53,324 nt of DNA from Alteromonadaceae bacterium (GTDB taxonomy: Bacteria > Pseudomonadota > Gammaproteobacteria > Enterobacterales > Alteromonadaceae). The notes beneath the pieces were generated by a model that did not search any database, had not been told where the DNA came from, and saw nothing but the letters and a program-made list of their open reading frames with translations. A program made the position numbers and the translations under genes. The DNA lies in assembly GCA_027013165.1 (NCBI GenBank), contig JALUXV010000200.1, forward strand, positions 1-53,324. Direction: 5' to 3'. This document shows, one piece after another, positions 37,911-53,324 of the stretch (position 1 is its first letter; every line of letters starts with the position of its first letter).

Positions 37911-37932
37911 TTGATTACAGAAATGTAATCAA
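37911..37932. promoter_or_regulatory. Perfect palindrome, candidate CusR/CopR box
   Basis: Arms TTGATTACA and TGTAATCAA flank GAAA. The core TGATTACA-N4-TGTAAT is identical to the site before the cus operon. It sits in the 215-base divergent gap, 98 bases before the GTG at 38030 and 97 bases before the SDR-oxidase ATG, so it could serve either gene. No strong -10 is evident at the matching distance. Confidence 0.65.
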
Positions 37933-38029
37933 TCTGTAATCGATTCGTTGTGAAGCTTTGATCTGAATCAACTACATTTGAAATGAAATCACTACGATTA
38001 AATACATAAACATTTAAGGGTAAGGTTCA

Positions 38030-38386
38030 GTGACTCGGTTCTCGTTAGTAAACATTTGGATAGCACTACTGCTGGTCAACACGTTATCGGTGAGTGTCCA
38101 TGCTACACGTGACATCGGATTTCATGAACATGCATCGACGGTGTTTATCAATGGTGAACGTGCACACGATGATGAGCAAAAAGAGCCTTTCACATCTTGT
38201 TATTGCCCAGACTGTTTTTATACGGACAATTCGTCTTCCAACGCACCGCTTGCCATTCTTGAAGCACACTCCTGTTTTTTAATTGAGGCGCTAGCGGATA
38301 AAAATCACAGAGATCGTTATCAGGTGCTCAAAAGACCTGTTCCGCCAAATCACCCGCCTCCCATAGAGTTTTTTGTTACTTCGTAA
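38030..38386 (+). CDS. Small exported protein with a CxCPxC motif
   Basis: A 118-residue protein with a signal peptide (LLLVNTLSVSVHA). The mature part has several histidines near the N-terminus (FHEH) and the cluster SCYCPDCFY, a likely metal or disulfide site, then a Pro-rich end (RPVPPNHPPP). The GTG at 38030 has TAAGG upstream. It is the first gene after the palindrome, a position parallel to that of the small His/Cys protein at 20987 in the other operon. Not otherwise recognised. Confidence 0.6.
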   Translation: MTRFSLVNIWIALLLVNTLSVSVHATRDIGFHEHASTVFINGERAHDDEQKEPFTSCYCPDCFYTDNSSSNAPLAILEAHSCFLIEALADKNHRDRYQVLKRPVPPNHPPPIEFFVTS

Positions 38387-38466
38387 GCGCACTTAACAAC
38401 GCAGTGCCAAATAAGTAAATCAACCCAGTTAGTGGGTAAGAAAAACAATTTAAAAAGAGAAATATT

Positions 38467-39642
38467 ATGCGATTACATAAAGGAGTGTTGCATGCAATGA
38501 TTTTTGTGGCCGGTATGATCACATCGTCACCATTGCTTGCATCTGAGACCACCGACCGGTTTGTCTTTGTGGGATACGGTGACGTTAAATATGAAAGTGC
38601 AGATGTAGCCGACACCGATGCTTTTTCGGCCAGGTTTGTTCCCATTTTTTTATTCAGTTTAAATGACAAAATGCATGTCGAAGCAGAACTCGAGTTTGGA
38701 TTGGACGAAAACGGGGAGACCGAAACCGAGCTCGAATATGCTGACATCCATTATTTCCTGAACGACAACACAACATTAACTGCCGGAAAATTCCTTTTAC
38801 CATTTGGGCAGTTTAGTGCCAACTGGCACCCTAGTTGGATTAATAGAAGTATATGGACCCCCGGCGTCTATGGCGCTCATGGCTCGAGCCAAGCAATGGA
38901 TCCATTGTTACCTATTCTTAGTGACGTAGGCGTAGCTGCACAGCAAGTCTATCAAGTCGGCTCGGCCAAGGTGTTTGTGGATGTTTTCATGACAAACGGT
39001 CCGCGCTCTGAAGCTGCTCATGACGAAGAAGAGATTGAGGATGATCATGATGATCTAATAGCTCGCTTTTTCGCACCCTCTGCTGCAGCTGATCCTGATT
39101 CGGAAGAAGATGGTCATGGTGAGGCGTTCCCGGAAGTGGAATTTGAAGCGACGAGTTCTGACAACAATAGCAATAAAGCGTTTGGTGGCCGCCTGGCTAT
39201 TGCCTTACTACCTTCAATCGAGATTGGAACGTCATATTATCAAGGTGCCTACGACGAACAAGGACAACTAGATATCACAGCCAATGGGTTTGATATCAAC
39301 TTTATTAGTACTCACGCCATCATCAGAGGCGAGTATATTAAAACTGAAACGGACTCATTTGTTGAGCGAGATCATGAGCAAACTATTGACTCATTTTCAC
39401 GCAATGGATGGTTTTTACAAGGTACTTTCTTCGTTGGGCATGCTTTTCAATCCCTAGGTAGTACTGAATTGGTCCTTGAATATGCTGAAACCAATAAAAT
39501 TGAAGAAGCGGAGCGCTGGATGGTAGGTGTCAACTATTGGTTGGACCCTCGTTCAGTTATTAAGGTGGGCTATGAAGATACAGACGTAGTTGAAGGTCCT
39601 GATGATACACGGTTTGCTGTGCAATTCAGCTATGGATTCTAG
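38467..39642 (+). CDS. Outer-membrane beta-barrel protein (porin-like)
   Basis: A 391-residue protein with a signal peptide ending at LLASE, then alternating amphipathic strands (FVFVGYGDVKYE; TTLTAGKFLLPFGQFSANWH) and a C-terminal strand ending in Phe (FAVQFSYGF), as outer-membrane assembly needs. A long loop near residues 180-225 is extremely acidic and has His (DEEEIEDDHDD; DSEEDGHGEA), which suggests metal-ion binding at the surface. It resembles putative porins found beside metal or cytochrome genes; no substrate can be assigned. Confidence 0.75.
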   Translation: MRLHKGVLHAMIFVAGMITSSPLLASETTDRFVFVGYGDVKYESADVADTDAFSARFVPIFLFSLNDKMHVEAELEFGLDENGETETELEYADIHYFLNDNTTLTAGKFLLPFGQFSANWHPSWINRSIWTPGVYGAHGSSQAMDPLLPILSDVGVAAQQVYQVGSAKVFVDVFMTNGPRSEAAHDEEEIEDDHDDLIARFFAPSAAADPDSEEDGHGEAFPEVEFEATSSDNNSNKAFGGRLAIALLPSIEIGTSYYQGAYDEQGQLDITANGFDINFISTHAIIRGEYIKTETDSFVERDHEQTIDSFSRNGWFLQGTFFVGHAFQSLGSTELVLEYAETNKIEEAERWMVGVNYWLDPRSVIKVGYEDTDVVEGPDDTRFAVQFSYGF

Positions 39643-39650
39643 GGGATATC

Positions 39651-40175
39651 ATGAACAAGAAATTAATTATATGTGCACTAATCACATTTATTTCGTTACC
39701 GAACTTGGCAGACGATGAAACCACACTTTCTGGCGCAGAGTTAATTAATAACAACTGTGCGCGTTGTCATAACAGTAGGCCTGTGCGTGAGTTTTCTATC
39801 AGTGAGTGGAGAGTGATCATGCCACACATGCGCGAAAAAGCGCATTTAACCGGCAGCGAAGTAAAAGCCATTCTTGAATTCATGGAAATAGCTTCTAGTC
39901 CTGCTCAACCGGTAGAGGTGACTCTGGCTAAATCATTAACAGTCAATCCACGTGACGTACTCACTCGATATGGTTGTCAAGGCTGTCATCAGGTTCAAGG
40001 TGTCGGAGGCTCCTTAGGGCCTGCGCTTGACGATGTCATTGAGGGCAAAGGGGAAGCTTTTTTTATCAAAAAAGTAAAAGAGCCACAGTTTAATAACGCT
40101 GCGTCTGCTATGCCCCAAATGCCTATTACGGATGAAGAAATAGCGGCTTTAGTAGATTACTTAAATTCCCTATAA
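39651..40175 (+). CDS. Dihaem cytochrome c
   Basis: A 174-residue periplasmic protein with a signal peptide ending near NLADDE and two haem-binding motifs, CARCH (about 36-40) and CQGCH (about 108-112). Each domain has a following Met that may be the sixth ligand (MPHMREK; AMPQMPITDEEI). The second domain is a normal class I cytochrome c; the first is shorter. It follows the barrel protein by eight bases and probably carries electrons for the redox proteins downstream. Confidence 0.88.
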   Translation: MNKKLIICALITFISLPNLADDETTLSGAELINNNCARCHNSRPVREFSISEWRVIMPHMREKAHLTGSEVKAILEFMEIASSPAQPVEVTLAKSLTVNPRDVLTRYGCQGCHQVQGVGGSLGPALDDVIEGKGEAFFIKKVKEPQFNNAASAMPQMPITDEEIAALVDYLNSL

Positions 40176-40267
40176 CTATTGACCTGTGAGTGACACATAA
40201 GTCTATGGTGCCAGAGTACAACACTATCTTTAAACCGCTCAACTGAGCAAATTAATAGGAAAATACG

Positions 40268-40705
40268 ATGAAAAAAATGAAAACGTTGGTTTTGGTGAGT
40301 GCACTCGCAATAACCACCTTATCGGTAGTGCCGGTTCATGCCCATTCGGGTGAATCAGATATGCCAATGATGCAAGCCAGTATGATGGAAAAAATGCAAA
40401 CACACATGGCTGAGATGCGTGTCGTTTTGGATGCCGTGAAAGAGGAATCAGATCCACAAAAACGAGAAGCTATGCTGCAAGAACATGCTCAAAAAATGCA
40501 GGACATGATGGACATGATGCAAACGGAGCATGGTAAAGGAATGATCGCAGAAAAAGGCATGGGGCATGATCACGGGGCAATGTCGACGGACGATAAAATC
40601 TCAATGATGGAAATGCGTATATCCATGATGGAAGAAATGATGGCGCAGATGATGGGGCACACCGCACAAAAAGCGAAGCCTATTCATAAGCACAAAAAAA
40701 ATTAA
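40268..40705 (+). CDS. Met/His-rich periplasmic protein
   Basis: A 145-residue protein with a signal peptide ending VHAHSG. The mature part is helical and packed with Met: MPMMQASMMEKMQTHM, MQDMMDMMQTEHG, MMEMRISMMEEMMAQMMGH, plus GHDHG and a basic KPIHKHKKN end. Met clusters bind Cu(I)/Ag(I), as in PcoE, SilE and CusF-like proteins, so a periplasmic copper sponge is the best guess. GCAAATTAATAGGAAAA precedes the ATG. I know no exact family. Confidence 0.75.
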   Translation: MKKMKTLVLVSALAITTLSVVPVHAHSGESDMPMMQASMMEKMQTHMAEMRVVLDAVKEESDPQKREAMLQEHAQKMQDMMDMMQTEHGKGMIAEKGMGHDHGAMSTDDKISMMEMRISMMEEMMAQMMGHTAQKAKPIHKHKKN

Positions 40706-40773
40706 AGTTACAGGGCTAGGCCTCTATGAATGATAACGGGCCTAGCAATACAGTTTTATTGTTGGAGGATCAC

Positions 40774-41130
40774 ATGAGCAAAATTTTCAAATTACTAGCA
40801 GTAGCCTTTCTCTCTATCGGTTTTTTAGGCGGTTGTGCGAGTCAAATTTATCACGATTACATAATGAGCGGCCAAATTGTCACTGTGGATGATAAACAAG
40901 TTGTGGTGTGCGTTTCAGATACTGACAGTATCAAAGAGCATCAAGTCTTTAACGTATATCGTACGGTCTATGATCCACTCGCCATATCGGAAGGAGAAGA
41001 CGGATACTCAAGAGAATTTGTCGGAAAAATTCGATTAGGCAAAACTAAAGATAAACATTTCGCTGAGGCAACCGTTCTTGATGGCGATCTAGCGCGGTAT
41101 GACATGGTTGAATTTGACCGCGGATTCTAG
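40774..41130 (+). CDS. Small lipoprotein of unknown function
   Basis: A 118-residue protein with a clear lipobox (FLGGCAS) and a beta-rich mature domain (GQIVTVDDKQVVVCVSDTDS; FVGKIRLGKTKDKHFAEATV). The domain is reminiscent of small OB-like surface domains. The ATG at 40774 has a strong GGAGG seven bases upstream; the longer frame from 40726 lacks one. It lies between two Met-rich exported proteins. Function unknown. Confidence 0.65.
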   Translation: MSKIFKLLAVAFLSIGFLGGCASQIYHDYIMSGQIVTVDDKQVVVCVSDTDSIKEHQVFNVYRTVYDPLAISEGEDGYSREFVGKIRLGKTKDKHFAEATVLDGDLARYDMVEFDRGF

Positions 41131-41154: not shown

Positions 41155-41973
41155 GTGAATACTAGATTTATAAAAACAACTAACCGTTTGACACCAATAT
41201 TGGTACTGGTATTGAGTGTGGCGTTCGCGACTGCGTGTTCCGCTCTGGCGCAAAGTGAACAACAAAGTCACAGTGCTCCAACGTCAACAAAAGAACAGAT
41301 TGAAACGACATCGGCTGACTTTGAAAAAATACAATCGTCTTTACTGCGTTTGGACACTGTACTTGCTGCACAACCGAAAAGCCTTGTTCACACCTCACAG
41401 CAGTCAATGCAGCCAGGTCAAATCAATCCATCGATGGACCGTTCTACAGATTCCATGATGATGGGAAAAGGCAGAATGGTGAAAGACGATGGTAAATCCT
41501 GCATGGGTATGATGTGTAAAATGAAGATGCAAAACATGTCCATGATGGGTATGGTTCCCAAACAGAATGGCGAAACGCAAACGTCTGTAACAACAATCTT
41601 GCCAGGCGCTCAAGACATCATGCACTTGTACCACATTGGCGAGGCAGCATTTTTCCTTGACCAGTCAGAGTTACTTAATTTATCCCCTTCTCAGCAGTCT
41701 CAATTGTTGGGCATTCAATCGAAATGGCAAAATATCCAAGATACACAAACGAATCGACGTAACGATTTAGAGCAGCGCCTTTGGGTTTTGACATCCGAAG
41801 GTAAACCCGAATATGGCGTCATTAAAGACGTTATTAATCAAATAGAATCGGCGAATAGCGCCATGCGGTTGGAGTTCATTGTTTTAGTGGGCGAGGCCGT
41901 ATCAGTGTTAACTCCCATACAATTAGAAGCACTAAAAACCTTGGCGTTATCGGATACAGGTAGGGCGCAATGA
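41155..41973 (+). CDS. Exported Spy/CpxP-like Met-rich protein
   Basis: A 272-residue protein with a signal peptide or lipoprotein signal (AFATACSALA). A spacer contains a dense Met/Cys cluster (CMGMMCKMKMQNMSMMGM, near 118-135). A helical domain with LNLSPSQQSQLLGIQSKW and VLTPIQLEALKTLAL follows, the LTxxQ type of Spy/CpxP/ZraP chaperones. ZraP and related proteins bind metals and help envelope stress tolerance. The start is GTG with GAGGGAG upstream. It overlaps the following reductase by four bases (ATGA). Confidence 0.75.
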   Translation: MNTRFIKTTNRLTPILVLVLSVAFATACSALAQSEQQSHSAPTSTKEQIETTSADFEKIQSSLLRLDTVLAAQPKSLVHTSQQSMQPGQINPSMDRSTDSMMMGKGRMVKDDGKSCMGMMCKMKMQNMSMMGMVPKQNGETQTSVTTILPGAQDIMHLYHIGEAAFFLDQSELLNLSPSQQSQLLGIQSKWQNIQDTQTNRRNDLEQRLWVLTSEGKPEYGVIKDVINQIESANSAMRLEFIVLVGEAVSVLTPIQLEALKTLALSDTGRAQ

Positions 41974-43868
41974 AGCGACAAAGGATTTATTTTTTCTCTG
42001 TATCTTGTGCGTTGATTTTTAGCGCCATAGTAATAGTTTCGCCATCGGGTGTCCATGCGCTACAACAGTCTGATGCTGATGAGCATGCCAGCCATCATCC
42101 CGAGGCAAATAGTGACTTAACCTCGAAAACATCACAAGATCTCACAACTGCAAACGGTAGTTCCATGATGGGCCCCGCCATGGGAAAACAGATGGATAGA
42201 ATGATGGAAAAAATGGGGGCGCCCAAACCCAAAGATCTCTATCCGACTCTCATGCGGATGCATGATATGACGCCGGAACAACAAATGGAAGTGCTACAGA
42301 AAGCCACGTCGAGAATGGAACAAGGAACAGTGCAATTGACCGCTGGATTTGAAAGTCTTGCCAATGCGGCTGATAGGGATGACCTTACCAGTATGCAAGA
42401 TTCCCTTGGTGTCATTAAAGAAGGTATTGCTCACTTCGACAGTGGTCTTGCTGCGAAACGTGCCATTCAAGATGGGCAAGAACCCAGAAGAGTTGCACTT
42501 ACTTGGTTTAAATCTCAGATGAATATATTACCAAGCTCTCCCACTTCAAGCAGTAATACGTTATTTGGTATGACGCCATTACATTCGGCAATTATGTTTA
42601 TCTTGCTGGGTTTTGTAAGTCTTATGTTTTACATCTATGGGGTCAAGATGCGCCGCGCATCAGCGCTACTGGGTGAGCTGAAAAATGTTGAGACTTCAAA
42701 TACCACTGTGATTAAAGAAAATAGTCGACGTCCGACTGCTGTTACAGATATAGAACAGGTGTCAACAGACACCTCTTTGGCACGCCAAAGTATGCCATCA
42801 GATCGCAACTCAAGAAAAGCAGCATATGTTGGCGATGTGCTGGTCATCGGTATTTTTCGTGAAACACACGATGTGAAAACATTTCGGCTCGCACTTTCCG
42901 ATGGTCAAGAACTACCGTTTGACTATGAGCCTGGCCAATTTGTCACCTTTACGCTTGACATCAAAGGTTTCGATAAACCGGTAAAACGATCATATACCAT
43001 TGCGTCATCTCCAACTGAGCGCAATTACTTTGAAGTAACCATCAAGCGCGAAGAGCACGGAACTGTATCTCGTTACATGCATGACACAGTTAATATCGGG
43101 GACATGCTTACTATAAAAGCCCCCGGCGGTAAGTTTTATTTTAACGGTAAAGAAGCAACTAGCGTGGTGTTGATATCGGGAGGTGTAGGGATTACGCCAA
43201 TGATGAGTGCTGTACGTTATTTAACTTCTACATGTTGGTCAGGAGAAATTTACTTTCTGTTTTGTACGCGAACAACCAACGATTTCATTTTCGAACAAGA
43301 GCTCAGATACCTGCAGGCGCGCCACACTAATTTAAAAGTACTCGTGAGTATGACACAAGCGGACGGGACATCATGGATGGGCCCACAAGGCCGATTCTCA
43401 TCTAATCTAGTGAACGAATTTGTTCCAGAAATTGCTTCAAAAACTGCGCATATATGTGGGCCGCCCGCCATGATGGATGCAATGACCAGCATGTTATTAG
43501 AACTCGGTATGCCGAATAAAAATATCAAGAAAGAAGCGTTTGGTTCAGGGTCTTCAAAAAAGGCGCTATCACCTCCCACTCCAGCTTCGGAAAACAATGT
43601 CGCTGTTGGTAAAAATGTGGTGTTCAGCCTCTCAAACGTCAATAGCCAAGCCGGACATGATCAGACGGTGTTAGATGTGGCTGATGATGTTGACGTAGAG
43701 ATTGAAAATTCCTGTCGGGCAGGCTCCTGTGGTAGCTGTAAAGTGAAGCTGTTGCGTGGTGATGTTGATATGGACGTGGATGATGGCCTTGAACCTGAGG
43801 ATAAAGCCAGTGGCTACATTTTGGCGTGTCAAGCTATTCCAAAAACTGATGTCGAGGTAGAAGCGTAA
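41970..43868 (+). CDS. Membrane-anchored FAD/2Fe-2S reductase with a periplasmic Met/His domain
   Basis: A 632-residue fusion. Signal (1-30), a periplasmic helical region (30-200) with Met-rich and MTPEQQMEVLQ segments, a membrane helix (about 205-226), then cytosolic ferredoxin-reductase domains: FAD (KRSYTIASSP), NAD(P) (ISGGVGITPMMS, ICGPPAMM), and a C-terminal plant-type 2Fe-2S domain with Cys582, Cys587, Cys590 (CRAGSCGSC) and a last Cys in ILACQ. It would take electrons from NAD(P)H. The next genes are cytochrome b and multihaem cytochrome c, the likely acceptors. Confidence 0.85.
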   Translation: MKRQRIYFFSVSCALIFSAIVIVSPSGVHALQQSDADEHASHHPEANSDLTSKTSQDLTTANGSSMMGPAMGKQMDRMMEKMGAPKPKDLYPTLMRMHDMTPEQQMEVLQKATSRMEQGTVQLTAGFESLANAADRDDLTSMQDSLGVIKEGIAHFDSGLAAKRAIQDGQEPRRVALTWFKSQMNILPSSPTSSSNTLFGMTPLHSAIMFILLGFVSLMFYIYGVKMRRASALLGELKNVETSNTTVIKENSRRPTAVTDIEQVSTDTSLARQSMPSDRNSRKAAYVGDVLVIGIFRETHDVKTFRLALSDGQELPFDYEPGQFVTFTLDIKGFDKPVKRSYTIASSPTERNYFEVTIKREEHGTVSRYMHDTVNIGDMLTIKAPGGKFYFNGKEATSVVLISGGVGITPMMSAVRYLTSTCWSGEIYFLFCTRTTNDFIFEQELRYLQARHTNLKVLVSMTQADGTSWMGPQGRFSSNLVNEFVPEIASKTAHICGPPAMMDAMTSMLLELGMPNKNIKKEAFGSGSSKKALSPPTPASENNVAVGKNVVFSLSNVNSQAGHDQTVLDVADDVDVEIENSCRAGSCGSCKVKLLRGDVDMDVDDGLEPEDKASGYILACQAIPKTDVEVEA

Positions 43869-44627
43869 ATGAACACGCAAGAGCGCACTATAGTCAGTGG
43901 TCTGGTTGTATTGATGATTTTATTATGGCTAGGTTTTGCATGGCACAGAGCCCCTGAATTTCCTGGTAGCCAATTTGGTTTTTTAGTTGGTGTGTTTGCT
44001 GTTGTCTTTATGTTACTTCCCCTTGTTTACATGATGATAAAACGCATCAAACCTCTCAAAGTGGCGGTAACAAAATATATATCGATGCCGTCACTACTGC
44101 GTATCCATATATACGGCGGTGTGCTAGGTCCCATTCTGGCACTCGTTCACAGCGCCCACCGATTTGAAAGCCCGGTGGGTATCGCGTTAGTTGTTTTGAT
44201 GATGGTGGTTGTCCTCAGTGGATTCATTGGTCGATATGTCCTCAGTCTGATTTCATCCAACGTAAAAGAGAAAAAGCGACAAGTGAGTGAGCTTCAAGAG
44301 GCATTGTCTGAAGCGAAAATATCACTCAAGAGTGCGGTGTGCGATGTGCGATATTCAACCTTTGCTGAAACAGCATCGCGCCAACTTCCGTTCCTAGCGT
44401 TTCAAGTAACTACGGGTGCACACAACAAGCTCTTTCGTCAAGAGCAACGTGTGTTATCACTTATCGATGCCATTTCTGATACGGAATACAGTATTTTCAT
44501 TCATGACACTGCAAAAATCTGGTTCTCAAGATGGTTGAAGTTCCACATTGTAATCTCGTTGGTGCTTTATTTTATACTACTCCTTCACATCACCAGTGAG
44601 GTCTACTTTGGGTTACGCTGGTTATGA
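43869..44627 (+). CDS. Membrane cytochrome b-like protein
   Basis: A 252-residue protein with about five membrane helices and a central coiled-coil loop (KEKKRQVSELQEALSEAKIS). Two helices have His pairs spaced 13-14 residues, HIYGGVLGPILALVH(SAH) and HIVISLVLYFILLLH, the pattern of dihaem cytochrome b proteins that carry electrons across the membrane. It starts at the base after the reductase stop and overlaps the multihaem cytochrome gene (ATGA). Haem binding is inferred. It may be the membrane link between the cytosolic reductase and periplasmic cytochromes. Confidence 0.72.
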   Translation: MNTQERTIVSGLVVLMILLWLGFAWHRAPEFPGSQFGFLVGVFAVVFMLLPLVYMMIKRIKPLKVAVTKYISMPSLLRIHIYGGVLGPILALVHSAHRFESPVGIALVVLMMVVVLSGFIGRYVLSLISSNVKEKKRQVSELQEALSEAKISLKSAVCDVRYSTFAETASRQLPFLAFQVTTGAHNKLFRQEQRVLSLIDAISDTEYSIFIHDTAKIWFSRWLKFHIVISLVLYFILLLHITSEVYFGLRWL

Positions 44628-45418
44628 TCAAGTGGATCCTTAGTGCCATTATCCTAGTCGGGATCATTTTTAGCATCAGTCATTTGTGGCACTCACCCGA
44701 CGACATCTCGAGCATAAATTGGGAACAGGCCATTCAGCCCGGTCAGCTGAGTAAAGCCCATGCATTTTTAGAAAACGATTGTCTTAGTTGCCATACCCCT
44801 GTCACCGGAGTAGAACGGGATAAGTGCGTAGCGTGCCATGCAAATGATACCCATGTTGTTGCGAGGCAGCCAACAGTATTCCATGCCGACATACAAGAAT
44901 GCTCAACATGCCATGTAGAACATCGAGGCGAGAATGCAACGATTTCATCAATGAACCATGTGGCACTTGTCGATATTGGCTTTAGCATGCTTCCGAATAC
45001 AAATGTTCCGTTTGATGAAGGCGCTTCTACTCTGGCGTTTTTAGAGAATGTTTTACGCTCAAACCAGTTACCGGATCCCCTTTTTGTTCATCCTGAAGTT
45101 GAGCAGAAAGAGGCGCTGCTTAATTGCTCACAATGCCACAGCAATGACGATCGACATGTTGGATTATTTGGGAATGACTGTGTCCAGTGTCACAGCACGC
45201 AATCCTGGTCTTTACCTGCGTTTATTCACCCTTCTAGCCAATCACGTGATTGCAATCAATGTCATGAAGCACCACCCAGCCATTACATGCAACATTTCAA
45301 GATGATATCGGCCACGGTGGCAGGAGAGCCTAAGGCACCTGTAGAAGCGTGTTATGCGTGTCATCAATCCACATCCTGGAATGATATCAAGCGTGCAGGC
45401 TGGTACAAACATCACTGA
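44624..45418 (+). CDS. Seven-haem membrane-anchored cytochrome c
   Basis: A 264-residue protein with an N-terminal uncleaved anchor (ILSAIILVGIIFSISH) and seven CxxCH motifs: CLSCH (53), CVACH (68), CSTCH (93), CSQCH (168), CVQCH (186), CNQCH (210) and CYACH (243). Three motifs then four, separated by a haem-free linker, suggest two cytochrome c3/c7-like modules. Many extra His can serve as sixth ligands. It is periplasmic and lies between cytochrome b and the hydrogenase genes, so it is a strong candidate electron carrier between them. Confidence 0.9.
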   Translation: MIKWILSAIILVGIIFSISHLWHSPDDISSINWEQAIQPGQLSKAHAFLENDCLSCHTPVTGVERDKCVACHANDTHVVARQPTVFHADIQECSTCHVEHRGENATISSMNHVALVDIGFSMLPNTNVPFDEGASTLAFLENVLRSNQLPDPLFVHPEVEQKEALLNCSQCHSNDDRHVGLFGNDCVQCHSTQSWSLPAFIHPSSQSRDCNQCHEAPPSHYMQHFKMISATVAGEPKAPVEACYACHQSTSWNDIKRAGWYKHH

Positions 45419-46668: not shown

Positions 46669-47229
46669 ATGACGGTACTAAACAATATCAAGCAATCCAC
46701 ACCAGCAACGATGGACAGTAAACAAGGCATCGTCATTATCGGTGTGGGTAATATTTTGCAACAAGATGATGGTGTCGGAGTGCATGCCATTAAAGCCCTA
46801 CGCTCCTGCGTTTCACAGCCTGAGCAGATATCTATTATCGATGCTGGCACATTAAGCTACGAATTGCTTGAGTGGGTGTCCCAATCTGACTACGCAATCA
46901 TTATTGATGCTGCGCGCATGCAGTGTACGCCGGGGACCATCAAAGTATTTAACGATGAGGAAATTCAACAGCAATTCGAGATAACAAAAGCACACTCTGT
47001 CCATCAAATTTCGCTACAAGATACGCTTTTGACAAGCCAAGCTCTTTATTCAAAACCATTTCGCGTCACGCTCATTGGCGTTGAGCCTGAGACTATCCAA
47101 TGGGGAACCACGCTCAGCACCAGCGTTCAAGCTGCACTACCAGCGATCATTAAAACGATTATCAGCTGTATTCAAAAAGCATCTGTTCTGCAACTTAACG
47201 ATATTGGCCATACGGAGGAAGAAGAGTGA
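46669..47229 (+). CDS. hynD: Hydrogenase maturation endopeptidase HynD (HyaD/HybD family)
   Basis: Clips the C-terminal tail of the hydrogenase large subunit after nickel insertion. The 186 residues begin with a 20-residue extension, then IVIIGVGNILQQDDGVGVHA, where Asp replaces the Glu metal ligand usual in HybD. Next are IIDAGTLSYELLEW with the second Asp, and AHSVHQISLQD with the His ligand. These mark the nickel-probing site. AAGGGGA precedes the ATG. Its substrate is surely HynL, encoded three genes downstream, whose predicted tail is 15 residues. Confidence 0.9.
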   Translation: MTVLNNIKQSTPATMDSKQGIVIIGVGNILQQDDGVGVHAIKALRSCVSQPEQISIIDAGTLSYELLEWVSQSDYAIIIDAARMQCTPGTIKVFNDEEIQQQFEITKAHSVHQISLQDTLLTSQALYSKPFRVTLIGVEPETIQWGTTLSTSVQAALPAIIKTIISCIQKASVLQLNDIGHTEEEE

Positions 47230-47660
47230 ATGACGAAATTATTTTTATGACATCCGATGCCTCACATACGGGCAATCTTACGCCACTGGTACATGAAATT
47301 CGTCATGCACTATTTCAGCTTATTGAGTCCGGTAAGGAATCTTCAATCGACTTACGACGACTCCCCTTAAGTCCCCAAGAAGAGCACCAATTAGAGACCT
47401 TTCTTGGATATGGCGAGGTAAAAGCGGACATTCAAGCGCTGGGAGATACCGTGCTAATTGAATCCCGGTTTTCAGGTGTTTGGCTTGAAACGCACTATAA
47501 CCAAACGTCGGATATTTTGGGCAAATACGTGCATATCTGTATTTGCCCTCAATTGATAAAGGCACAGCATCAGGATATGTCTTTCTCGTTGTCGCAATTA
47601 GAGATTGCTGTAGATGCACTTTCAAAATCAAACGAAAGCCCTGATAACCAGGAGAGCTAA
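47226..47660 (+). CDS. hupH: Hydrogenase accessory protein HupH (HyaF-like)
   Basis: A 144-residue cytosolic protein corresponding to the C-terminal HupH domain: LVHEIRHALFQLIESGKESS, then LPLSPQEEHQLETFLGYGEV and a beta half with ESRFSGVWLETHYN. HupH/HyaF proteins help mature the small-subunit Fe-S clusters of uptake hydrogenases. It is about half the length of full HupH proteins, so only the core is present. The start is GTG overlapping the hynD stop; hynS follows after one base. Confidence 0.85.
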   Translation: MNDEIIFMTSDASHTGNLTPLVHEIRHALFQLIESGKESSIDLRRLPLSPQEEHQLETFLGYGEVKADIQALGDTVLIESRFSGVWLETHYNQTSDILGKYVHICICPQLIKAQHQDMSFSLSQLEIAVDALSKSNESPDNQES

Positions 47661-47661: not shown

Positions 47662-48654
47662 ATGACTAAGACTACGCTGAATGAACAGTTACAGCGATCA
47701 GGGATTTCTCGACGAACATTTCTAAAGTTTTGCGCCACAACTGCATCGCTGCTTGCTCTGCCGCAATGCGCAGTCGCAGAGATAGCGCAAGCACTCGGCA
47801 GTGCTAGCCGACCAACCGTTATCTGGTTGCCATTTCAAGAATGTACCGGTTGCACGGAATCAATACTACGTTCACACGCGCCAACACTAGAAAGCTTAAT
47901 CTTCGACCATGTTTCACTTGATTATCAACACACAATTATGGCCGCTGCTGGTGATCAGGCCGAGGAAGCGCGACGCACAGCAATAAAGAATAATAAGGGC
48001 AAATATCTTCTCTTAGTTGATGGTTCAGTGCCAATGGGAAACCCAGGATATTCGACTATTAGTGGAATTAGCAATGTCGACATGCTGCGAGAATCCGCTG
48101 CTCATGCAGCGGGCGTTATCGCGATTGGTACATGCGCTTCATTTGGCGGGATCCCCAAGGCCAATCCTAATCCTACAGGGGCAGTGTCAGTCGCGGATAT
48201 TATCACGGATAAGCCCATTGTTAACATTTCTGGTTGCCCACCTTTGCCCATTGCTATCACTGCAGTACTTGCTTATTACCTGACTTTCAACCGATTTCCG
48301 GACCTCGATCATTTGAACAGGCCGCTGGCGTTTTTTGGCGAAACGATTCACGACCGTTGTTATAGACGGCCTTTTTATGAGAAACGCATGTTTGCCAAAT
48401 CTTTTGACGATGAGGGAGCGAAGAATGGATGGTGTTTATTTGAGCTTGGTTGCAAAGGGCCTGAAACATTTAATGCGTGTGCAACTGTTAAATGGAATCA
48501 GGGCACGAGTTTCCCCATCGAGTCAGGGCACCCTTGCCTAGGATGTTCTGAGCCTGATTTTTGGGATAAAGGTAGCTTTTATCAACCTTTGTTTCCGTGG
48601 CAAAAATACAAAGCTAAGCCTGGGAAAGGTCAACAAAAGCACAAAGGCTCATAG
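47662..48654 (+). CDS. hynS: [NiFe] hydrogenase small subunit HynS
   Basis: Fe-S electron-transfer subunit, exported folded by the Tat system (SRRTFLKF at 16-23). From the ATG at 47662 (GGAGAG upstream) it is 330 residues. The proximal cluster begins ECTGCTES (Cys61, Cys64). GTCASFGG, NISGCPPLP, the distal RCYRRPF and GWCLFELGC, and the medial HPCLGC are all present. The two extra cysteines of O2-tolerant group 1d enzymes are absent (ECTGC rather than ECTCC). There is no C-terminal membrane helix. This fits a group 1e/HynSL-like periplasmic enzyme. Confidence 0.94.
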   Translation: MTKTTLNEQLQRSGISRRTFLKFCATTASLLALPQCAVAEIAQALGSASRPTVIWLPFQECTGCTESILRSHAPTLESLIFDHVSLDYQHTIMAAAGDQAEEARRTAIKNNKGKYLLLVDGSVPMGNPGYSTISGISNVDMLRESAAHAAGVIAIGTCASFGGIPKANPNPTGAVSVADIITDKPIVNISGCPPLPIAITAVLAYYLTFNRFPDLDHLNRPLAFFGETIHDRCYRRPFYEKRMFAKSFDDEGAKNGWCLFELGCKGPETFNACATVKWNQGTSFPIESGHPCLGCSEPDFWDKGSFYQPLFPWQKYKAKPGKGQQKHKGS

Positions 48655-48669
48655 ATAGAGAAAATCATT

Positions 48670-50544
48670 ATGAAGAAAACAGAAAATGAGCGTTTAGTCG
48701 TTGATCCTATCACCCGTATTGAAGGCCATTTGCGAATTGAAGCAGAAATGGATGGCAATACGATAAAGCGCGCATACTCATCGGGAACGTCCGTAAGGGG
48801 TATAGAGCTGATATTGCAAGGGCGAGACCCGCGTGATGCATGGGCTTTTGCACAGCGTATATGCGGTGTCTGCACGTTAGTTCATGGTATGGCTTCGGTC
48901 AGATCCGTGGAAAATACCATAAAAAAAGCGTGGTTATCGAATGCAAAATTGGGAGTGAAGGCAGGCTCCCCCGCGATGACATCAATGCCTAAGGGTCCTA
49001 TGCGACATGGAATGAAAGGGCATAAGGGAAGAGCGAGTACTGCCAAAACACCGGATAAGATGGATATAGAGATACCTCAAAATGCACAGTTAATCCGTAA
49101 TATCATGATCGCTACACAATATGTTCATGACCATGTCATGCACTTTTATCATTTACACGCATTGGATTGGGTTGATGTGGTTTCAGCATTGGATGCTGAT
49201 CCGGTTAAAACCGCGAGACTTGCTGGAACATTGAGTGCTTATCCTCGTTCATCCCCCGGGTACTTCAAAGACATGAAGGCAAAGGTGAAACGGCTTGTAG
49301 AGTCCGGTCAGTTAGGTATTTTCAGTAACGCTTATTGGGGGCACCCCGGTTATAAATTGCCTGCGGAAGTCAACTTAATGGCGCTAGCGCATTATCTTGA
49401 TGCATTGGAGTGGCAACGTGACGTCGTGAAAGTTCATACGATTTTTGGGGGCAAAAATCCACATCCAAATTTTGTCGTTGGTGGTGTTCCATCCCCCATT
49501 AATCTTGATGCGTCTACGGGGATCAATACTCAGCGGTTAGTGCAGTTGCAAGATGCCATATCACAGATGAAAATGTTTGTGGATGAAGTGTACTTCCCAG
49601 ATATCTTAGCAATTGGGGGTTATTATAAAGATTGGAGCCTACGTGGCGAAGGATTAGGTAATTTTCTCACCTATGGTGATTTACCAATGACATCCATGGA
49701 TGAACCTGATTCGTTTTTGTTTCCGCGCGGTGCAATTCTAGGACGAGATCTAAAAACGATTTACGATGTAGATTTAGATGAACCCTCTGAAATTCAAGAG
49801 TTTGTTTCCTCCTCATGGTATCGATACAAAGACGGAAATAAAAACGGATTACACCCTTTCGAAGGTGAGACCAAACTCGAGTATACCGGTCCCACGCCCC
49901 CCTATAAACACTTGGATACACAAGCAGAGTATTCGTGGTTAAAAAGTCCTCGATGGAAAGGACATGCGATGGAAGTGGGACCGCTTGCACGTGTGCTAAT
50001 GATGTATGCTAAAAAAAATGCGATGGCAGAGGAAATTGTCGATAGTTCCCTATCACTTTTAAAACTAAAAGAAGGAGCCCTATTTTCGACGCTTGGGAGG
50101 ACCCTTGCCAGAGCTGTTGAAACAAAAATAGTCGTGAATCAATTACAAATTTGGTACGACGCTCTGTTGGATAATATTGCGAAAGGGAATACAACGACTT
50201 TTAATCCCTTGTACTTCGATCCACAAAACTGGCCCATTAACGGACAAGGGGTCGGCGTAATGGAGGCGCCACGTGGCGCATTGGGACACTGGATGGTCAT
50301 GCACAATGGTTCGATCAGCAACTATCAATGCGTCGTACCCACGACGTGGAATGCAGGACCAAGAGATCCTGATTTAAAGGCGGGGGCATACGAGTCTGCC
50401 TTACAAGACAAACACACCTTATATGATCCGGACCAACCCTTAGAAATCTTGCGTACCCTTCACAGCTTTGATCCCTGCCTTGCTTGTGCAGTGCATGTTT
50501 TGGATGCTCAAGGAGAGGAGCGCCTTCGAGTTAAAGTTCGCTAA
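48670..50544 (+). CDS. hynL: [NiFe] hydrogenase large subunit HynL
   Basis: Holds the NiFe(CN)2CO centre that splits or makes H2. The 624 residues have the L1 motif RICGVCTLVH (Cys65, Cys68) and the L2 motif DPCLACAVH (Cys603, Cys606), with His609 as the cleavage point and a 15-residue tail removed by HynD. It travels to the periplasm with HynS. Residues about 84-131 form an unusual Lys/Met/Gly/His-rich insertion (MPKGPMRHGMKGHKGRAS) before the conserved PQNAQLIRNIM. Otherwise it is a normal uptake-type subunit. Confidence 0.95.
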   Translation: MKKTENERLVVDPITRIEGHLRIEAEMDGNTIKRAYSSGTSVRGIELILQGRDPRDAWAFAQRICGVCTLVHGMASVRSVENTIKKAWLSNAKLGVKAGSPAMTSMPKGPMRHGMKGHKGRASTAKTPDKMDIEIPQNAQLIRNIMIATQYVHDHVMHFYHLHALDWVDVVSALDADPVKTARLAGTLSAYPRSSPGYFKDMKAKVKRLVESGQLGIFSNAYWGHPGYKLPAEVNLMALAHYLDALEWQRDVVKVHTIFGGKNPHPNFVVGGVPSPINLDASTGINTQRLVQLQDAISQMKMFVDEVYFPDILAIGGYYKDWSLRGEGLGNFLTYGDLPMTSMDEPDSFLFPRGAILGRDLKTIYDVDLDEPSEIQEFVSSSWYRYKDGNKNGLHPFEGETKLEYTGPTPPYKHLDTQAEYSWLKSPRWKGHAMEVGPLARVLMMYAKKNAMAEEIVDSSLSLLKLKEGALFSTLGRTLARAVETKIVVNQLQIWYDALLDNIAKGNTTTFNPLYFDPQNWPINGQGVGVMEAPRGALGHWMVMHNGSISNYQCVVPTTWNAGPRDPDLKAGAYESALQDKHTLYDPDQPLEILRTLHSFDPCLACAVHVLDAQGEERLRVKVR

Positions 50545-50563: not shown

Positions 50564-50782
50564 ATGAAAAAGTATTTACTGAGAGAAAAAAACATCAGGA
50601 TGACATTGGCAGTTGCATCCCTTTTCATGATGTCAACTACTGCAATCGCGCACCCTGGACATGATGGCAATCATGGGGCGTTTTGGTTTGCGGTAATGTT
50701 TACGCTTATCACTAGTTCGAGTCTTTTTGTATTTTTCAAGAGAAAGAAACGTCGTCAATCGATGTCAAAAGGTTACGAGTGA
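50564..50782 (+). CDS. Small His-rich membrane protein of the hydrogenase operon
   Basis: A 72-residue protein with a signal-like helix ending AIAHPGHDGNHGAFW and a C-terminal membrane helix followed by a basic KRKKRRQS anchor. HPGHDGNHG is like the N-terminal nickel-binding motif of HupE/UreJ proteins, but the rest of HupE is missing. It may tether the hydrogenase or bind nickel. The ATG at 50564 has TGGAG upstream and overlaps hypC at its end (TGATG). Function unknown. Confidence 0.65.
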   Translation: MKKYLLREKNIRMTLAVASLFMMSTTAIAHPGHDGNHGAFWFAVMFTLITSSSLFVFFKRKKRRQSMSKGYE

Positions 50783-51009
50783 TGTGCCTCGCTGTCCCGA
50801 TGAAAGTCAAAGCCTTAAATAACTTTAACGCGGTCTGTGAAGCCAAAGGGGTGAGTCGTGACGTGAGCCTCCAATTAGTACAGCAAGAAGAGGTTCAGGT
50901 TGGTGATTATGTCATGGTTCATGTGGGTTATGCATTACAGGTCATCTCCTACGAAGAGGCCATGATCCGATGGAAATTGCTAGATCAGGTGATGTCTTAC
51001 AGTGCATGA
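50782..51009 (+). CDS. hypC: Hydrogenase maturation chaperone HypC
   Basis: A 75-residue OB-fold chaperone that with HypD carries the Fe(CN)2CO unit and hands it to the large subunit. The essential N-terminus MCLAVPMKV places Cys2 correctly, which fixes the start at 50782, not the GTG one codon earlier. VGDYVMVHVGYALQVISYEEA is the usual HypC C-terminal half. The stop overlaps hypA by eight bases. Confidence 0.93.
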   Translation: MCLAVPMKVKALNNFNAVCEAKGVSRDVSLQLVQQEEVQVGDYVMVHVGYALQVISYEEAMIRWKLLDQVMSYSA

Positions 51010-51352
51010 AATGAGTCTTTGTCAGAGTCTGTTTGACGTGATAGCTGACTATCAACTAGAGCGTGAAGAACAAATTGTCAAGGTTGTGACGATCCATGTT
51101 GGACCTCTGTCAGGCGTGGAGCCGACACTTTTTGTAAGAGCGTTTAACTTATTAAAAGGCCAAACAATAGGGGAGCAAGCAGTGTTACGCATTGATGTTT
51201 CACCCATCAAAGTAGTCTGTAAATTATGTGGTAGTGAGAGCGAAGTCTCTGCAAACAGGATTATTTGTTCACAATGTGGCTCATGGCAAACAACGCTTAT
51301 TGAGGGTGATCAGTTTGTTTTAAGCCGAATTGAATTTATGCAGTCTCGTTAA
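51002..51352 (+). CDS. hypA: Hydrogenase nickel-insertion protein HypA
   Basis: A 116-residue nickel metallochaperone. Its GTG start gives MHEMSLCQSL, so the nickel-binding His2 is in place. The zinc site has two pairs, CKLC and CSQC, in the order expected. It works with HypB to load nickel into HynL. It overlaps hypC, and hypB follows 26 bases on with AGGAAGG before its ATG. Length and motifs are normal for the family. Confidence 0.93.
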   Translation: MHEMSLCQSLFDVIADYQLEREEQIVKVVTIHVGPLSGVEPTLFVRAFNLLKGQTIGEQAVLRIDVSPIKVVCKLCGSESEVSANRIICSQCGSWQTTLIEGDQFVLSRIEFMQSR

Positions 51353-51378
51353 TTAAAAGATCAGGAAGGTAAAGAATT

Positions 51379-52122
51379 ATGTGCGGTGGTTGTGGCTGTG
51401 AAAGTAAAAAAGAATCGTCTCTCAATACAGACTTTAGGGTCGACGTAGTAAATATGGCTGAAGATATTAAAGGCAAAAATGCTGCAGTGGCAAAGACTAA
51501 CAAAGCCTTGTTTGACGCACACAATGTTTTAGTGATCAATTTAATGTCCTCACCAGGAAGCGGTAAAACCCGCCTGCTTGAAGAAACACTTAGGCGGCTA
51601 AAACACCGATACCAATTTGCTGTATTAGAGGGGGATTTAGAAACAGAGAATGATGCCAATCGCATTCGTCGGCACGGTATTCATGCAGAACAAATTGCTA
51701 CTGGACAAGGCTGTCATTTAGACGCAGATATGGTCTCGACGGCAATCGGGAATTTTGAGTTAGCTAGTCTGGATGTGCTGTTTATTGAAAATGTAGGCAA
51801 TTTAATTTGTCCTGCCTGCTTTGACCTTGGGCAACACAAAAACGTGATTTTGCTGTCTGTGCCGGAGGGCGATGACAAGCCAGAAAAATATCCCATTATG
51901 TTTCGTGCTGCGGACGTAATGCTTATCACTAAGACAGACTTCTTAGACTTTGTCATGGAGTTTGATGTCAGTCGAGCGATCAAGTCTTTCAACAGTGTAG
52001 GTGATAATGCGCCTGTATTGGAGGTGTCAGTAAAGGATGACGAACGCTTCAATGGATGGCTTGCCTACTTAACGCAAATAATTGACACGCACCTGTCAAA
52101 CCAAACCAGACAACACAGGTGA
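51379..52122 (+). CDS. hypB: Hydrogenase maturation GTPase HypB
   Basis: A 247-residue GTPase that drives nickel delivery with HypA. The N-terminus MCGGCGC gives the high-affinity nickel site (Cys2, Cys5, Cys7). The P-loop SPGSGKT is at residues 58-64. The G-domain metal site has GQGCHLDADM (Cys112, His113) and GNLICPACFDLG. There is no His-rich storage stretch as in some HypBs. hypD starts eight bases after its stop. Confidence 0.93.
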   Translation: MCGGCGCESKKESSLNTDFRVDVVNMAEDIKGKNAAVAKTNKALFDAHNVLVINLMSSPGSGKTRLLEETLRRLKHRYQFAVLEGDLETENDANRIRRHGIHAEQIATGQGCHLDADMVSTAIGNFELASLDVLFIENVGNLICPACFDLGQHKNVILLSVPEGDDKPEKYPIMFRAADVMLITKTDFLDFVMEFDVSRAIKSFNSVGDNAPVLEVSVKDDERFNGWLAYLTQIIDTHLSNQTRQHR

Positions 52123-52129
52123 GATAACC

Positions 52130-53263
52130 ATGCATAACGCAGAATCGTTGTTAAAGAGTGTAAAAATCGAAACGTTTCCAAAGCCACTTCGTATTCTCAA
52201 TGTGTGTGGCGGTCATGAGCGAGCGATCACAAAAGCGGGTCTGCGAACGCTTTTTGATCACAATATTCATTTAATACCGGGATCTGGATGCCCTGTTTGC
52301 ATATGCCCTGAAGAAGATATTGCATGTGCAATCACGCTAGCGTTTAAAGAGAAAGTTATTTTGGTTAGTTTCGGGGATATGGTGAGAGTACCTATCTCTG
52401 ATTCGATTAATGGATGCCATTCACTTGCTGACGCGAAAACGAAAGGCGCAAACATTCGCGCAATTGCCTCACCTAATGAAGCGCTTTTTATTGCTCAGTC
52501 AAATCCAAAATCAATGGTTATTTTCTTTGCTGTCGGATTTGAAACGACCATGGCCCCAATTGCTGCTGCGTTACAAACTCGACTTCCTACCAATTTAAAA
52601 GTGCTGTTATCAGGACGTCTAACCTGGCCCGCTGTTGAGCACCTTCTTAGACAACGAAGTGACGCGTTCGATGCGCTCGTCGCTCCAGGGCACGTAGCAA
52701 CTATTATGGGAGTGAACCAGTGGCGTTTTATCGTTGAACATTTTGATTTACCCGTGTGTGTTTCCGGCTTTCACTCAGAAAGTCTGATTCTTGCCATTTA
52801 TACGTTGATAGAAGACAGAAAAAAGGGACGACACACATTAACAAATGCCTACCCTGAAGTAGTAAGAGGTGAGGGGAATCTTACGGCACAATCAGTGCTG
52901 AAAAGCGCCTTTAATGTCGTTGATGCAAACTGGCGTGGCATTGGAGTAATACCCGCTTCAGGTTTTGTCTTATCAGAGAAACTGGCGGACCTCGATGTAT
53001 TCAGTGAATTTAAGCGAGATAAACTCTACAACAAGTGCACAGAACCGTTACTTGATGACGATTCACCTTGCACATCCGTCACGCTCGGCCAACTTCGTCC
53101 TGATCATTGCCCATACTTTGGTAAAAGCTGCAAACCAAACACACCAAAGGGCGCATGCATGGTGTCGGCTGAAGGAGCGTGTCGTATTTGGTATACAACT
53201 GCCGACCAGAACGCTTTTCATACTACCTCAGAGCGAATAGCACTGACTCGGGATGTGCCATGA
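52130..53263 (+). CDS. hypD: Hydrogenase maturation Fe-S protein HypD
   Basis: A 377-residue scaffold where CO and cyanide are joined to iron. From the ATG at 52130 (AGGTGAG upstream; the open frame reaches back into hypB) it has NVCGGHERAI with catalytic Cys26, then GSGCPVC (Cys54, Cys57), FAVGFETT and a C-terminal [4Fe-4S] set in HCPYFGKSC, GACMVSAEGAC. The usual GPGCPVC reads GSGCPVC here. It overlaps the next start by four bases (ATGA). Confidence 0.93.
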   Translation: MHNAESLLKSVKIETFPKPLRILNVCGGHERAITKAGLRTLFDHNIHLIPGSGCPVCICPEEDIACAITLAFKEKVILVSFGDMVRVPISDSINGCHSLADAKTKGANIRAIASPNEALFIAQSNPKSMVIFFAVGFETTMAPIAAALQTRLPTNLKVLLSGRLTWPAVEHLLRQRSDAFDALVAPGHVATIMGVNQWRFIVEHFDLPVCVSGFHSESLILAIYTLIEDRKKGRHTLTNAYPEVVRGEGNLTAQSVLKSAFNVVDANWRGIGVIPASGFVLSEKLADLDVFSEFKRDKLYNKCTEPLLDDDSPCTSVTLGQLRPDHCPYFGKSCKPNTPKGACMVSAEGACRIWYTTADQNAFHTTSERIALTRDVP

Positions 53264-53324
53264 GCTCGACATCATCTAGCCACGCACAAAATAACACAAT
53301 TCCTCAATCGGTAGCTTATGAGGT
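53260..53324 (+). CDS. Start of a further hyp gene (probably hypF or hypE), cut by the window end
   Basis: An ATG overlapping the hypD stop opens a frame that runs to the window edge: MSSTSSSHAQNNTIPQSVAY and on, 21 full codons. Only hypF and hypE of the maturation set are missing so far. SVAYEV could be the first strand of a HypF acylphosphatase domain, but too little is visible to be sure. Confidence 0.5.
   Translation, partial: MSSTSSSHAQNNTIPQSVAYE

What the first reader, a model, noticed from the sequence alone, without database searches (positions are those of the whole stretch)
37911..53324. [NiFe] hydrogenase apparently in one long transcription unit with metal-stress genes
From 38030 to the window end, all genes are on the plus strand and the largest gaps are about 80-92 bases, with overlaps through most of it. 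The run starts at a copper-box-like palindrome and ends in hynSL-hyp. Hydrogen metabolism controlled by copper stress, or used to power metal tolerance, would be a new link.
Basis: inference. Interest (0 to 1): 0.75.

Follow-up and report, generated by a model that had tools for sequence, protein, structure and literature searches.

The report
Copper-box promoter on hydrogenase operon
In marine Alteromonas-type bacteria, a set of electron-carrying genes that is often found near copper-resistance genes has been joined to a hydrogen-using enzyme, and the whole run sits behind one conserved control site that looks set to respond to both copper and low oxygen; this is predicted from sequence and has not been measured.

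Summary
In detail: from 38030 to the contig end the genes run on the plus strand with gaps of at most 92 nt. The palindrome is real. With its third half-site it occurs exactly twice in the 4.79-Mb genome, before cusCBA and before this run, and it matches the published AgrR/CopR-type box. Relatives add four things. (1) Box plus an FNR-type site 44 nt downstream are present in 18 of 18 promoters in view (11 with the exact palindrome, 7 with one change). (2) The upstream genes are mainly a transmembrane electron-transfer set with Met-rich proteins, not classical metal-stress genes. (3) Its reductase-Orf1-cytochrome core was found near copper genes in 10 of 13 other plasmids, hydrogenase in none. 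(4) Six of 19 loci lost the hydrogenase but kept promoter and module; others lost first genes but kept promoter and hydrogenase. So the hydrogenase looks like an add-on to a copper- and low-oxygen-controlled redox operon. The metal-resistance/hydrogenase island was already published; I found no published copper control in the open library. One transcript, copper response and any H2-copper function are untested.

The parts
18597..20670 (-). cusS-cusR, copper two-component system, the likely regulator
   Evidence: CusS sensor domain PF21085; TIGR01387 339.5 bits over cut-off 279.2 and TIGR01386 438.9 over 292.55
20880..20906 (+). copper-type box of the cus promoter (ATTACA-N4-TGTAAT plus GTAAT half-site)
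   Evidence: no FNR-type site within 150 nt in 9 of 9 cus-type loci checked
37911..37940 (+). copper-type box of the hydrogenase operon: palindrome plus a third half-site 11 bp on
   Evidence: present in 18 of 18 promoters in view, 7 of them with ATTACG in the first half-site
37958..37971 (+). FNR-type site TTGATCTGAATCAA, the only exact TTGAT-N4-ATCAA in the window
   Evidence: always 44 nt from the box start, 18 of 18
37993..37998 (+). putative -10 element TACGAT, 31 nt from the centre of the FNR-type site
   Evidence: TA.GAT in all 15 distinct promoters; role inferred
38030..38386 (+). 118-aa secreted-type protein with SCYCPDC motif
   Evidence: no family hit; no match in several relatives
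38467..39642 (+). porin (Porin_O_P, weak)
   Evidence: truncated or absent in several relatives
39651..40175 (+). cytochrome c with two CXXCH motifs
   Evidence: truncated in several relatives
40268..40705 (+). 145-aa Met/His-rich secreted-type protein (19.3% Met), likely Cu(I)-binding
   Evidence: function inferred from composition
40726..41130 (+). 134-aa lipoprotein-like protein; homologs near the cassette in three other plasmids
   Evidence: Methylophaga 37%, Sphingobium 32%, Caulobacter 34%
41155..41973 (+). 272-aa protein with a Met-rich stretch; homolog annotated 'periplasmic heavy metal sensor' in Variovorax
41970..43868 (+). 632-aa reductase: Met-rich N-terminus, membrane segment, FAD, NAD and 2Fe-2S domains
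43869..44627 (+). Orf1, membrane protein with His80/His94 and His226/His240, candidate di-heme cytochrome b
   Evidence: these His invariant in 16 of 16 family rows; heme binding inferred
44624..45418 (+). multiheme cytochrome c, seven CXXCH motifs, N-terminal hydrophobic segment
45430..46653 (+). Orf2, about 10 membrane segments; by gene order the counterpart of AltDE Orf2, reported among the proteins needed for maximal HynSL activity in E. coli
   Evidence: PMC3102683 passages
46669..47660 (+). hynD (maturation protease) and hupH
47662..50544 (+). hynS (Tat-type signal) and hynL (RICGVC, DPCLAC), [NiFe] hydrogenase
   Evidence: start of hynS placed by eye
50564..53263 (+). small ORF, hypC, hypA, hypB, hypD; contig ends before hypF-hypE
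   Evidence: relatives

Best explanation
A copper-island electron-transfer operon has acquired a [NiFe] hydrogenase as its distal part. One main promoter, with a start near 38005, reads two signals: periplasmic Cu(I)/Ag(I) through CusRS at the 6-4-6 box, and oxygen limitation through FNR at a class-II-spaced site. Transcription then runs through the Met-rich, presumably copper-binding proteins, the reductase, the membrane di-heme cytochrome, the seven-heme cytochrome and Orf2 into hynD-hupH-hynSL-hyp. Shown by sequence: both sites, their fixed spacing and conservation, the gene order, and loss of the hydrogenase or of first genes with the promoter kept. Inferred: binding by CusR and FNR, read-through, heme and copper binding, and function. 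Most likely function: the module moves electrons between cytoplasmic NAD(P)H and periplasmic copper-handling proteins when oxygen-dependent copper oxidation fails, and HynSL, for which no HupC- or Isp-type cytochrome subunit was matched in the run, uses the same periplasmic cytochrome as its electron partner, feeding in electrons from H2. I give about 0.75 to the dual control, 0.7 to read-through into hynSL, and 0.35 to the H2-to-copper function.
For: Box: two exact 26-bp matches in 4.79 Mb. Of 14 exact matches in 60 genomes, 7 are at cus, 5 at this operon, 1 between cusR and a multicopper oxidase, 1 unidentified. It matches the footprinted AgrR box ATKACANNNNTGTMAT with flanking half-site repeats (PMC7380067, passages). 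18 of 18 promoters in view have box and FNR-type site 44 nt apart; in the 15 distinct promoters, invariant positions are 67% in the box, 79% in the FNR-type site, 41% between them, 9% upstream and 16% downstream. A Fnr over its curated cut-off is in 5 of 5 genomes searched. First genes missing or truncated in AltDE, UBA3532, pAM1A3 and eight others, promoter kept (one locus). Hydrogenase deleted in 6 of 19 loci, by at least two different junctions, module kept. The reductase-Orf1-cytochrome cassette lies within 9 kb of copper genes in 10 of 13 other plasmid regions, with hydrogenase or Orf2 in 0 of 13. No terminator-like site in the two large gaps.
Against: No expression or binding data. The 18 promoters are perhaps five lineages, so less independent than the count suggests; 7 of 18 carry a changed half-site (ATTACG); and the conservation figures come from an ungapped alignment, so indels in the flanks lower the flank scores. 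The box centre lies about 83 nt above the putative start, further than the footprinted -74 to -40 of the AgrR target, so CusR might act weakly or not at all there. Control windows half a plasmid away also held copper genes in 3 of 7, so the cassette's copper association is suggestive only. Six loci keep the module without this hydrogenase, so the module does not need it. The divergent gene at 35700-37814 is also conserved and could be the box's target. The run has weak promoter-like sites inside it that I did not all test, and more terminator-like sites than shuffles, though inside genes. Orf1's structure model was poor (pLDDT 65) and Orf1 had no convincing match in the PDB (best E 0.14).
Confidence: 0.58

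Rival explanations
1. Ordinary island neighbours: the copper-type box drives only the first genes, and the hydrogenase has its own promoter inside the upstream genes.
For: A metal-resistance/hydrogenase island is already described, with metal and hydrogenase genes treated as separate cassettes (PMC4119200, passages). Five weak plus-strand promoter-like sites lie in the run, at 46511, 46712, 50105, 50400 and 51872; the first is just before hynD.
Against: The -10 of the site at 46511 is not at that place in any of the 12 relatives printed (the other four sites were not checked). Gaps before orf2 and hynD are 11 and 15 nt. Promoter-like sites on both strands are no more frequent than in shuffles, 23 against 29.7. 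No excess of RpoN-type sites, 38 against 35.1. The promoter stays where the first genes are missing.
Confidence: 0.2
2. FNR-only control: the operon is an anaerobic redox/hydrogenase operon, and the copper-type box is a relic of a copied cus-like promoter.
For: The FNR-type site is perfect, class-II spaced and falls where several cus promoters have a -10-like hexamer, so a CusR-proximal -10 seems gone. In 7 of 18 promoters one half-site has a change. Hydrogenases are commonly FNR-controlled (general knowledge).
Against: The box and its third half-site are kept in 18 of 18 while flanks diverge; a relic should decay.
Confidence: 0.15
3. The box serves the divergent SDR/FAD-oxidase gene (35700-37814) rather than the hydrogenase side.
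For: A gene of that kind lies next to the promoter in all 18 loci in view.
Against: The order palindrome, half-site, -10, gene is the same as towards the cus genes, that is, it points to the + strand; the FNR-type site and conserved -10 also lie on that side.
Confidence: 0.05

Closest known systems
Alteromonas macleodii Deep ecotype (AltDE) HynSL hydrogenase cluster and its metal-resistance/hydrogenase island
   Same: Same gene order orf1-cyt-orf2-hynD-hupH-hynSL-hyp (PMC3102683); G012, whose chromosome length of 4,480,937 matches AltDE, has the same promoter elements
   Different: From orf1 on, window proteins are 57-86% identical to those of G012; the passages seen do not mention a copper-type box, an FNR-type site or the upstream module as one operon
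AgrR/CopR/PcoR copper-silver response-regulator boxes
   [quoted passage not shown] cusRS in the window
   Different: Lies further upstream of the putative start, with an FNR-type site between; binding not shown
Reductase-Orf1-cytochrome c3 cassettes in copper islands (Variovorax, Sphingobium, Caulobacter, Acetobacter, Spirosoma and others)
   Same: Same three genes in the same order; the 134-aa relative in 3 of 13 regions
   Different: No hydrogenase and no Orf2 matched in any of the 13 regions
Thiocapsa roseopersicina HynSL with Isp1/Isp2 (partnership recalled; isp1/isp2 named in PMC3102683)
   Same: HynSL-type enzyme with a membrane cytochrome partner
   Different: No isp genes recognised in this run; Orf1 and the seven-heme cytochrome may stand in their place, homology not tested

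Membership tests
AgrR/CopR-type copper box | 6-4-6 inverted repeat ATKACANNNNTGTMAT | tested here: met
   Met in the window and in 11 of 18 promoters; 7 of 18 have ATTACG in the first half-site; consensus from PMC7380067
[quoted passage not shown]
   GTAAT at the same offset in both window boxes and in 18 of 18 operon promoters
AgrR/CopR-type copper box | Position about -74 to -40 from the start site | tested here: inconclusive
   At the hydrogenase operon the box centre is about -83 from the putative start; start sites not mapped
AgrR/CopR-type copper box | Bound by the response regulator | not testable with these tools
   needs EMSA or footprint
FNR class II promoter | TTGAT-N4-ATCAA about 31 nt above the -10 (spacing rule recalled) | tested here: met
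   the -10 (TA.GAT) is weak
FNR class II promoter | Fnr encoded in the genome | tested here: met
   G000 C493, 362.1 bits over cut-off 228
Group 1-type [NiFe] hydrogenase (AltDE HynSL type) | RxCGxC and DPCxxC nickel ligands, small subunit with Tat-type signal, maturation genes (motifs recalled) | tested here: met
   RICGVC, DPCLAC, SRRTFLKFC
Group 1-type [NiFe] hydrogenase (AltDE HynSL type) | Hydrogenase activity | not testable with these tools
   AltDE enzyme reported active (PMC3102683)
Classical copper-resistance operon (cus, pco/cop) | Contains efflux pump, P-type ATPase, multicopper oxidase, CopB, CopC or CopD | tested here: not met
   None matched in 38030-53263; such genes lie upstream (21.4-32.3 kb) and, in relatives, downstream (merR-copA)
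Reductase-Orf1-cytochrome copper-island cassette | Three genes in order, Orf1 with four spaced His | tested here: met
   (16 of 16 rows)
Reductase-Orf1-cytochrome copper-island cassette | Lies beside copper genes | tested here: inconclusive
   10 of 13 regions against 3 of 7 control windows, the controls all from plasmids already positive at the cassette

The most novel reading that the evidence does not exclude
Hydrogen oxidation is part of an anoxic copper-defence circuit: CusRS and FNR jointly switch on a transmembrane electron chain with Met-rich copper proteins, and HynSL feeds it with electrons from H2 to keep periplasmic copper, or the proteins it damages, in a harmless redox state.
Probability: 0.28. 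Interest if true: 0.82.

Novelty: new variant of a known kind. Interest (0 to 1): 0.62.

Why it matters
The physiological role and electron partner of the much-engineered AltDE HynSL hydrogenase are, as far as the passages I saw go, unassigned. A copper plus low-oxygen promoter and a copper-island electron cassette in the same run give a concrete hypothesis for both, testable in an existing laboratory strain. It would link H2 metabolism to metal stress in marine bacteria and help to explain why the hydrogenase travels with metal-resistance islands. It also points to a three-gene electron-transfer cassette, found here in plasmids of Proteobacteria and Bacteroidota often near copper genes, for which my searches brought up no study.

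Tried and rejected
CopY-type box (ATTACA-N2-TGTAAT): no exact match in the window, 5 matches with 2 mismatches against 3.7 expected; rejected. RpoN control of the hydrogenase: no excess of sites; rejected. Homology of the two small Cys-containing first genes behind the two boxes: no significant similarity (BLASTP E 4.6); dropped. Structure of Orf1: model with pLDDT 65, not used for any fold search. Orf2 against solved structures: no match up to E 1. Copper boxes near other hydrogenases: 0 of 17 short loci (six of the 53% type from the genus, eleven from the class) hold the palindrome, but these loci reach at most about 1.5 kb beyond the hynL match, so this is weak. Papers: eight searches listed no paper whose title or abstract start reports copper control of this hydrogenase. 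Of the listed papers I saw passages of seven (PMC4781885, PMC3102683, PMC8478169, PMC4223743, PMC7380067, PMC10141476, PMC4119200); the rest only as listings. The AEM 2011 paper on this enzyme (PMC3067314) is not held and the FEMS 2011 paper cited in PMC4119200 was not looked up, so prior mention cannot be excluded.

The copper association of the cassette was first counted without a control. Control windows then showed copper genes in 3 of 7, so I lowered it to suggestive. I took the seven controls only from plasmids that had copper genes at the cassette, and had planned but did not run an eighth. I opened 13 non-Alteromonadaceae regions of the 52 plasmid records found in each (Sphingobium alone makes up 17 of the 52). 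PLSDB gene tables are incomplete, so absence of hydrogenase and Orf2 was also tested by tblastn.
Full report
What was claimed.

The observation. It is correct. The genes from 38030 to hypD (53263) are on +, the two largest gaps are 80 and 92 nt, and the others, are 26 nt or less or overlaps. The window is contig C200 of a 586-contig Alteromonas-type assembly with 6.5% estimated contamination. The run does not end there; the contig does. Relatives continue with hypF, hypE, merR and copA.

The palindrome. ATTACA-N4-TGTAAT occurs exactly twice in the window, at 20880 and 37914; 300 Markov simulations gave 0.003 per window and none with two. Both copies carry a third half-site, GTAAT, 11 bp from the second. 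The 26-bp pattern TTACA-N4-TGTAAT-N6-GTAAT has two exact matches in the 4.79-Mb genome, both these, one match with one mismatch elsewhere, and none for the reversed control. The first copy is the promoter between cusRS (window 18597-20670) and a small Cys-containing gene, DUF411 and cusCBA. In 60 genomes (own and related) the pattern with up to one mismatch has 36 matches against 10 for the reversed control. Of the 14 exact matches, 7 are at cus, 5 at the hydrogenase operon, 1 between a cusR homolog and a multicopper oxidase, and 1 (L018) has no recognised copper gene nearby. Of the 22 one-mismatch matches, 8 lie at cus, at this operon or near a multicopper oxidase, 11 match none of the window's proteins in the 3 kb around them and may be chance, and 3 were not examined. 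The site matches the experimentally footprinted AgrR box of Cupriavidus metallidurans, ATKACANNNNTGTMAT with half-site repeats on one or both sides (PMC7380067, passages read). I therefore take it as the CusR operator, by inference.

A second input. Forty-four nt downstream of the box start lies TTGATCTGAATCAA, a perfect FNR-type site and the only exact one in the window. All 18 loci of this operon whose promoter is in view have both elements at exactly this spacing: 17 and pGLAAG01. In 7 of the 18 the first half-site reads ATTACG instead of ATTACA. Two further loci, an Oleiphilaceae MAG (L104) and contig C77 of the same genome, begin inside the operon. In the 15 distinct 240-nt promoters, 67% of box positions and 79% of FNR-site positions are invariant, against 41% between them, 9% in the 95 nt upstream and 16% in the 80 nt downstream. 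The alignment is ungapped, so indels in the flanks lower the flank figures. These loci group into a handful of lineages, so they are not 18 independent tests. A TA.GAT hexamer 31 nt beyond the centre of the FNR-type site is present in all 15, which fits a class II FNR promoter with a start near 38005. In nine cus-type promoters no FNR-type site lies within 150 nt, and several have a -10-like hexamer (TATTCT, TATACT) about where the operon has the FNR-type site. So the operon's promoter looks like a cus-type operator joined to an FNR-type promoter. Fnr is encoded in 5 of 5 genomes searched.

The genes. Between promoter and hydrogenase lie a 118-aa secreted-type protein, a porin, a cytochrome c, a 145-aa protein with 19.3% Met, a 134-aa lipoprotein-like protein, a 272-aa and a 632-aa protein with Met-rich stretches, the latter ending in FAD, NAD and 2Fe-2S domains, Orf1, a cytochrome with seven CXXCH motifs, and Orf2 with about ten membrane segments. 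In Orf1, His80, His94, His226 and His240 (and His26 and His97) are invariant in 16 of 16 family members from four classes of bacteria. Two His pairs each 14 apart are the usual pattern of membrane di-heme cytochromes b (general knowledge); heme binding is inferred. HynSL carries the nickel-ligand motifs and a Tat-type signal; the best solved match of HynL by sequence is chain 3myr_B. Orf2's counterpart in AltDE, by gene order, is reported among the proteins needed for full HynSL activity in E. coli, whereas Orf1 and Cyt were not (PMC3102683, passages). That fits Orf1 and Cyt being electron partners rather than maturation factors; it does not prove it.

What relatives show. In all eleven the promoter is kept and leads into the rest. 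In six of 19 loci (Alteromonas sp. IB21, Salinimonas profundi, S. iocasae, A. oceani, the Thalassotalea MAG and Aliiglaciecola lipolytica) hynS and hynL are gone from the locus while promoter and module through orf2 are intact. Five share one junction 41 nt after orf2 into the end of hypF, two of these with a further loss in hypE; A. lipolytica has a different junction between hynD and hypE. A. oceani (G074) holds a 53% HynL relative elsewhere, while IB21, S. profundi and S. iocasae have no HynL match at 1e-30. Thirteen of 19 keep the hydrogenase (in UBA3532 the contig ends in hynD), and C77 cannot tell. So what is constant is promoter plus redox module; the hydrogenase is optional.

The module elsewhere. 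Orf1 relatives occur in 52 plasmid records in each of two searches. I opened 13 non-Alteromonadaceae regions. In all 13 a reductase or 2Fe-2S gene lies directly before Orf1 (in Bradyrhizobium cut by an insertion sequence) and a relative of the cytochrome lies after it (annotation, tblastn). Copper genes (copA, multicopper oxidase or CopB) lie within 9 kb in 10 of 13; not in Bradyrhizobium or Methylocystis, and Pontibacter has only a CusA-like pump. HynL, HynS, HypD, HypF and Orf2 have no match in any of the 13. In an unnamed gammaproteobacterium (G188) the module is followed by a Met-rich protein, a multicopper oxidase and a CopB-like protein, again with no hydrogenase or Orf2 match. As a control, windows half a plasmid away held copper genes in 3 of 7. 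All seven controls came from plasmids that were positive at the cassette, so the fair comparison is 10 of 13 against 3 of 7. These are metal-rich plasmids, and the association is suggestive rather than proven.

Mosaic history. In 150-nt bins the window is 96-100% identical to pKD02 up to about 39,950, within the cytochrome c gene, and then 50-75% to 42,500. A diverged hydrogenase operon thus sits behind a near-identical promoter, a sign of recombination within this operon family.

Transcript. No plus-strand terminator-like site lies in the large gaps; the region as a whole has more such sites than shuffles (22 against 13.7 on both strands), those on the plus strand within genes. Of five weak plus-strand promoter-like sites only the one before hynD was checked, and it is not conserved. 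This makes read-through likely but does not show it.

Known and new. The island pairing of metal resistance with this hydrogenase is published (PMC4781885 and PMC4119200, passages). An RNA-seq study of AltDE used rich medium at two temperatures, minimal medium and starvation, with no copper condition in the passages seen (PMC4223743). I found no report of copper control of this hydrogenase in eight searches of the open library (listed under Tried and rejected); two key papers were not available or not looked up. What is new here, to my knowledge, is the shared copper operator, the paired FNR-type site, and the recognition that the upstream genes include a copper-island electron cassette. The rating is new variant of a known kind: each part is of a known type, the combination is not.

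Noticed in passing
window 14017-18468: Patatin-like phospholipase, DncV-like cyclase, E1-E2 and JAB genes: an ordinary CBASS-type anti-phage operon beside the copper island.
   Followed up: partly
window about 39,950: Sharp recombination break: 96-100% identity to pKD02 before, 50-75% after.
   Followed up: yes
G000 contig C77 (L008): A second copy of reductase-orf1-cyt-orf2 in the same assembly, 69-77% identical to the window's proteins; a second island or contamination.
   Followed up: partly
window 29134-30972: Another large flavin/2Fe-2S reductase, with a weak PepSY-type membrane match, downstream of cusA.
   Followed up: no
L018 (G029 C9:56610): An exact copper-type box before a 150-aa protein with a CCC motif and a permease-like protein, no known copper gene nearby.
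   Followed up: partly
L004 (pAM1A3): hynL has no listed CDS and hypF appears in pieces in the (incomplete) plasmid table, so the HOT1A3 hydrogenase may be broken or misread.
   Followed up: no
window 5200-8262 and 12855-13865: Tn3-family transposase and a KfrA-like gene; the contig may be plasmid-borne.
   Followed up: no
window 35700-37814: Conserved divergent gene, a fusion of a short-chain dehydrogenase and an FAD-linked oxidase, sharing the promoter region.
   Followed up: no
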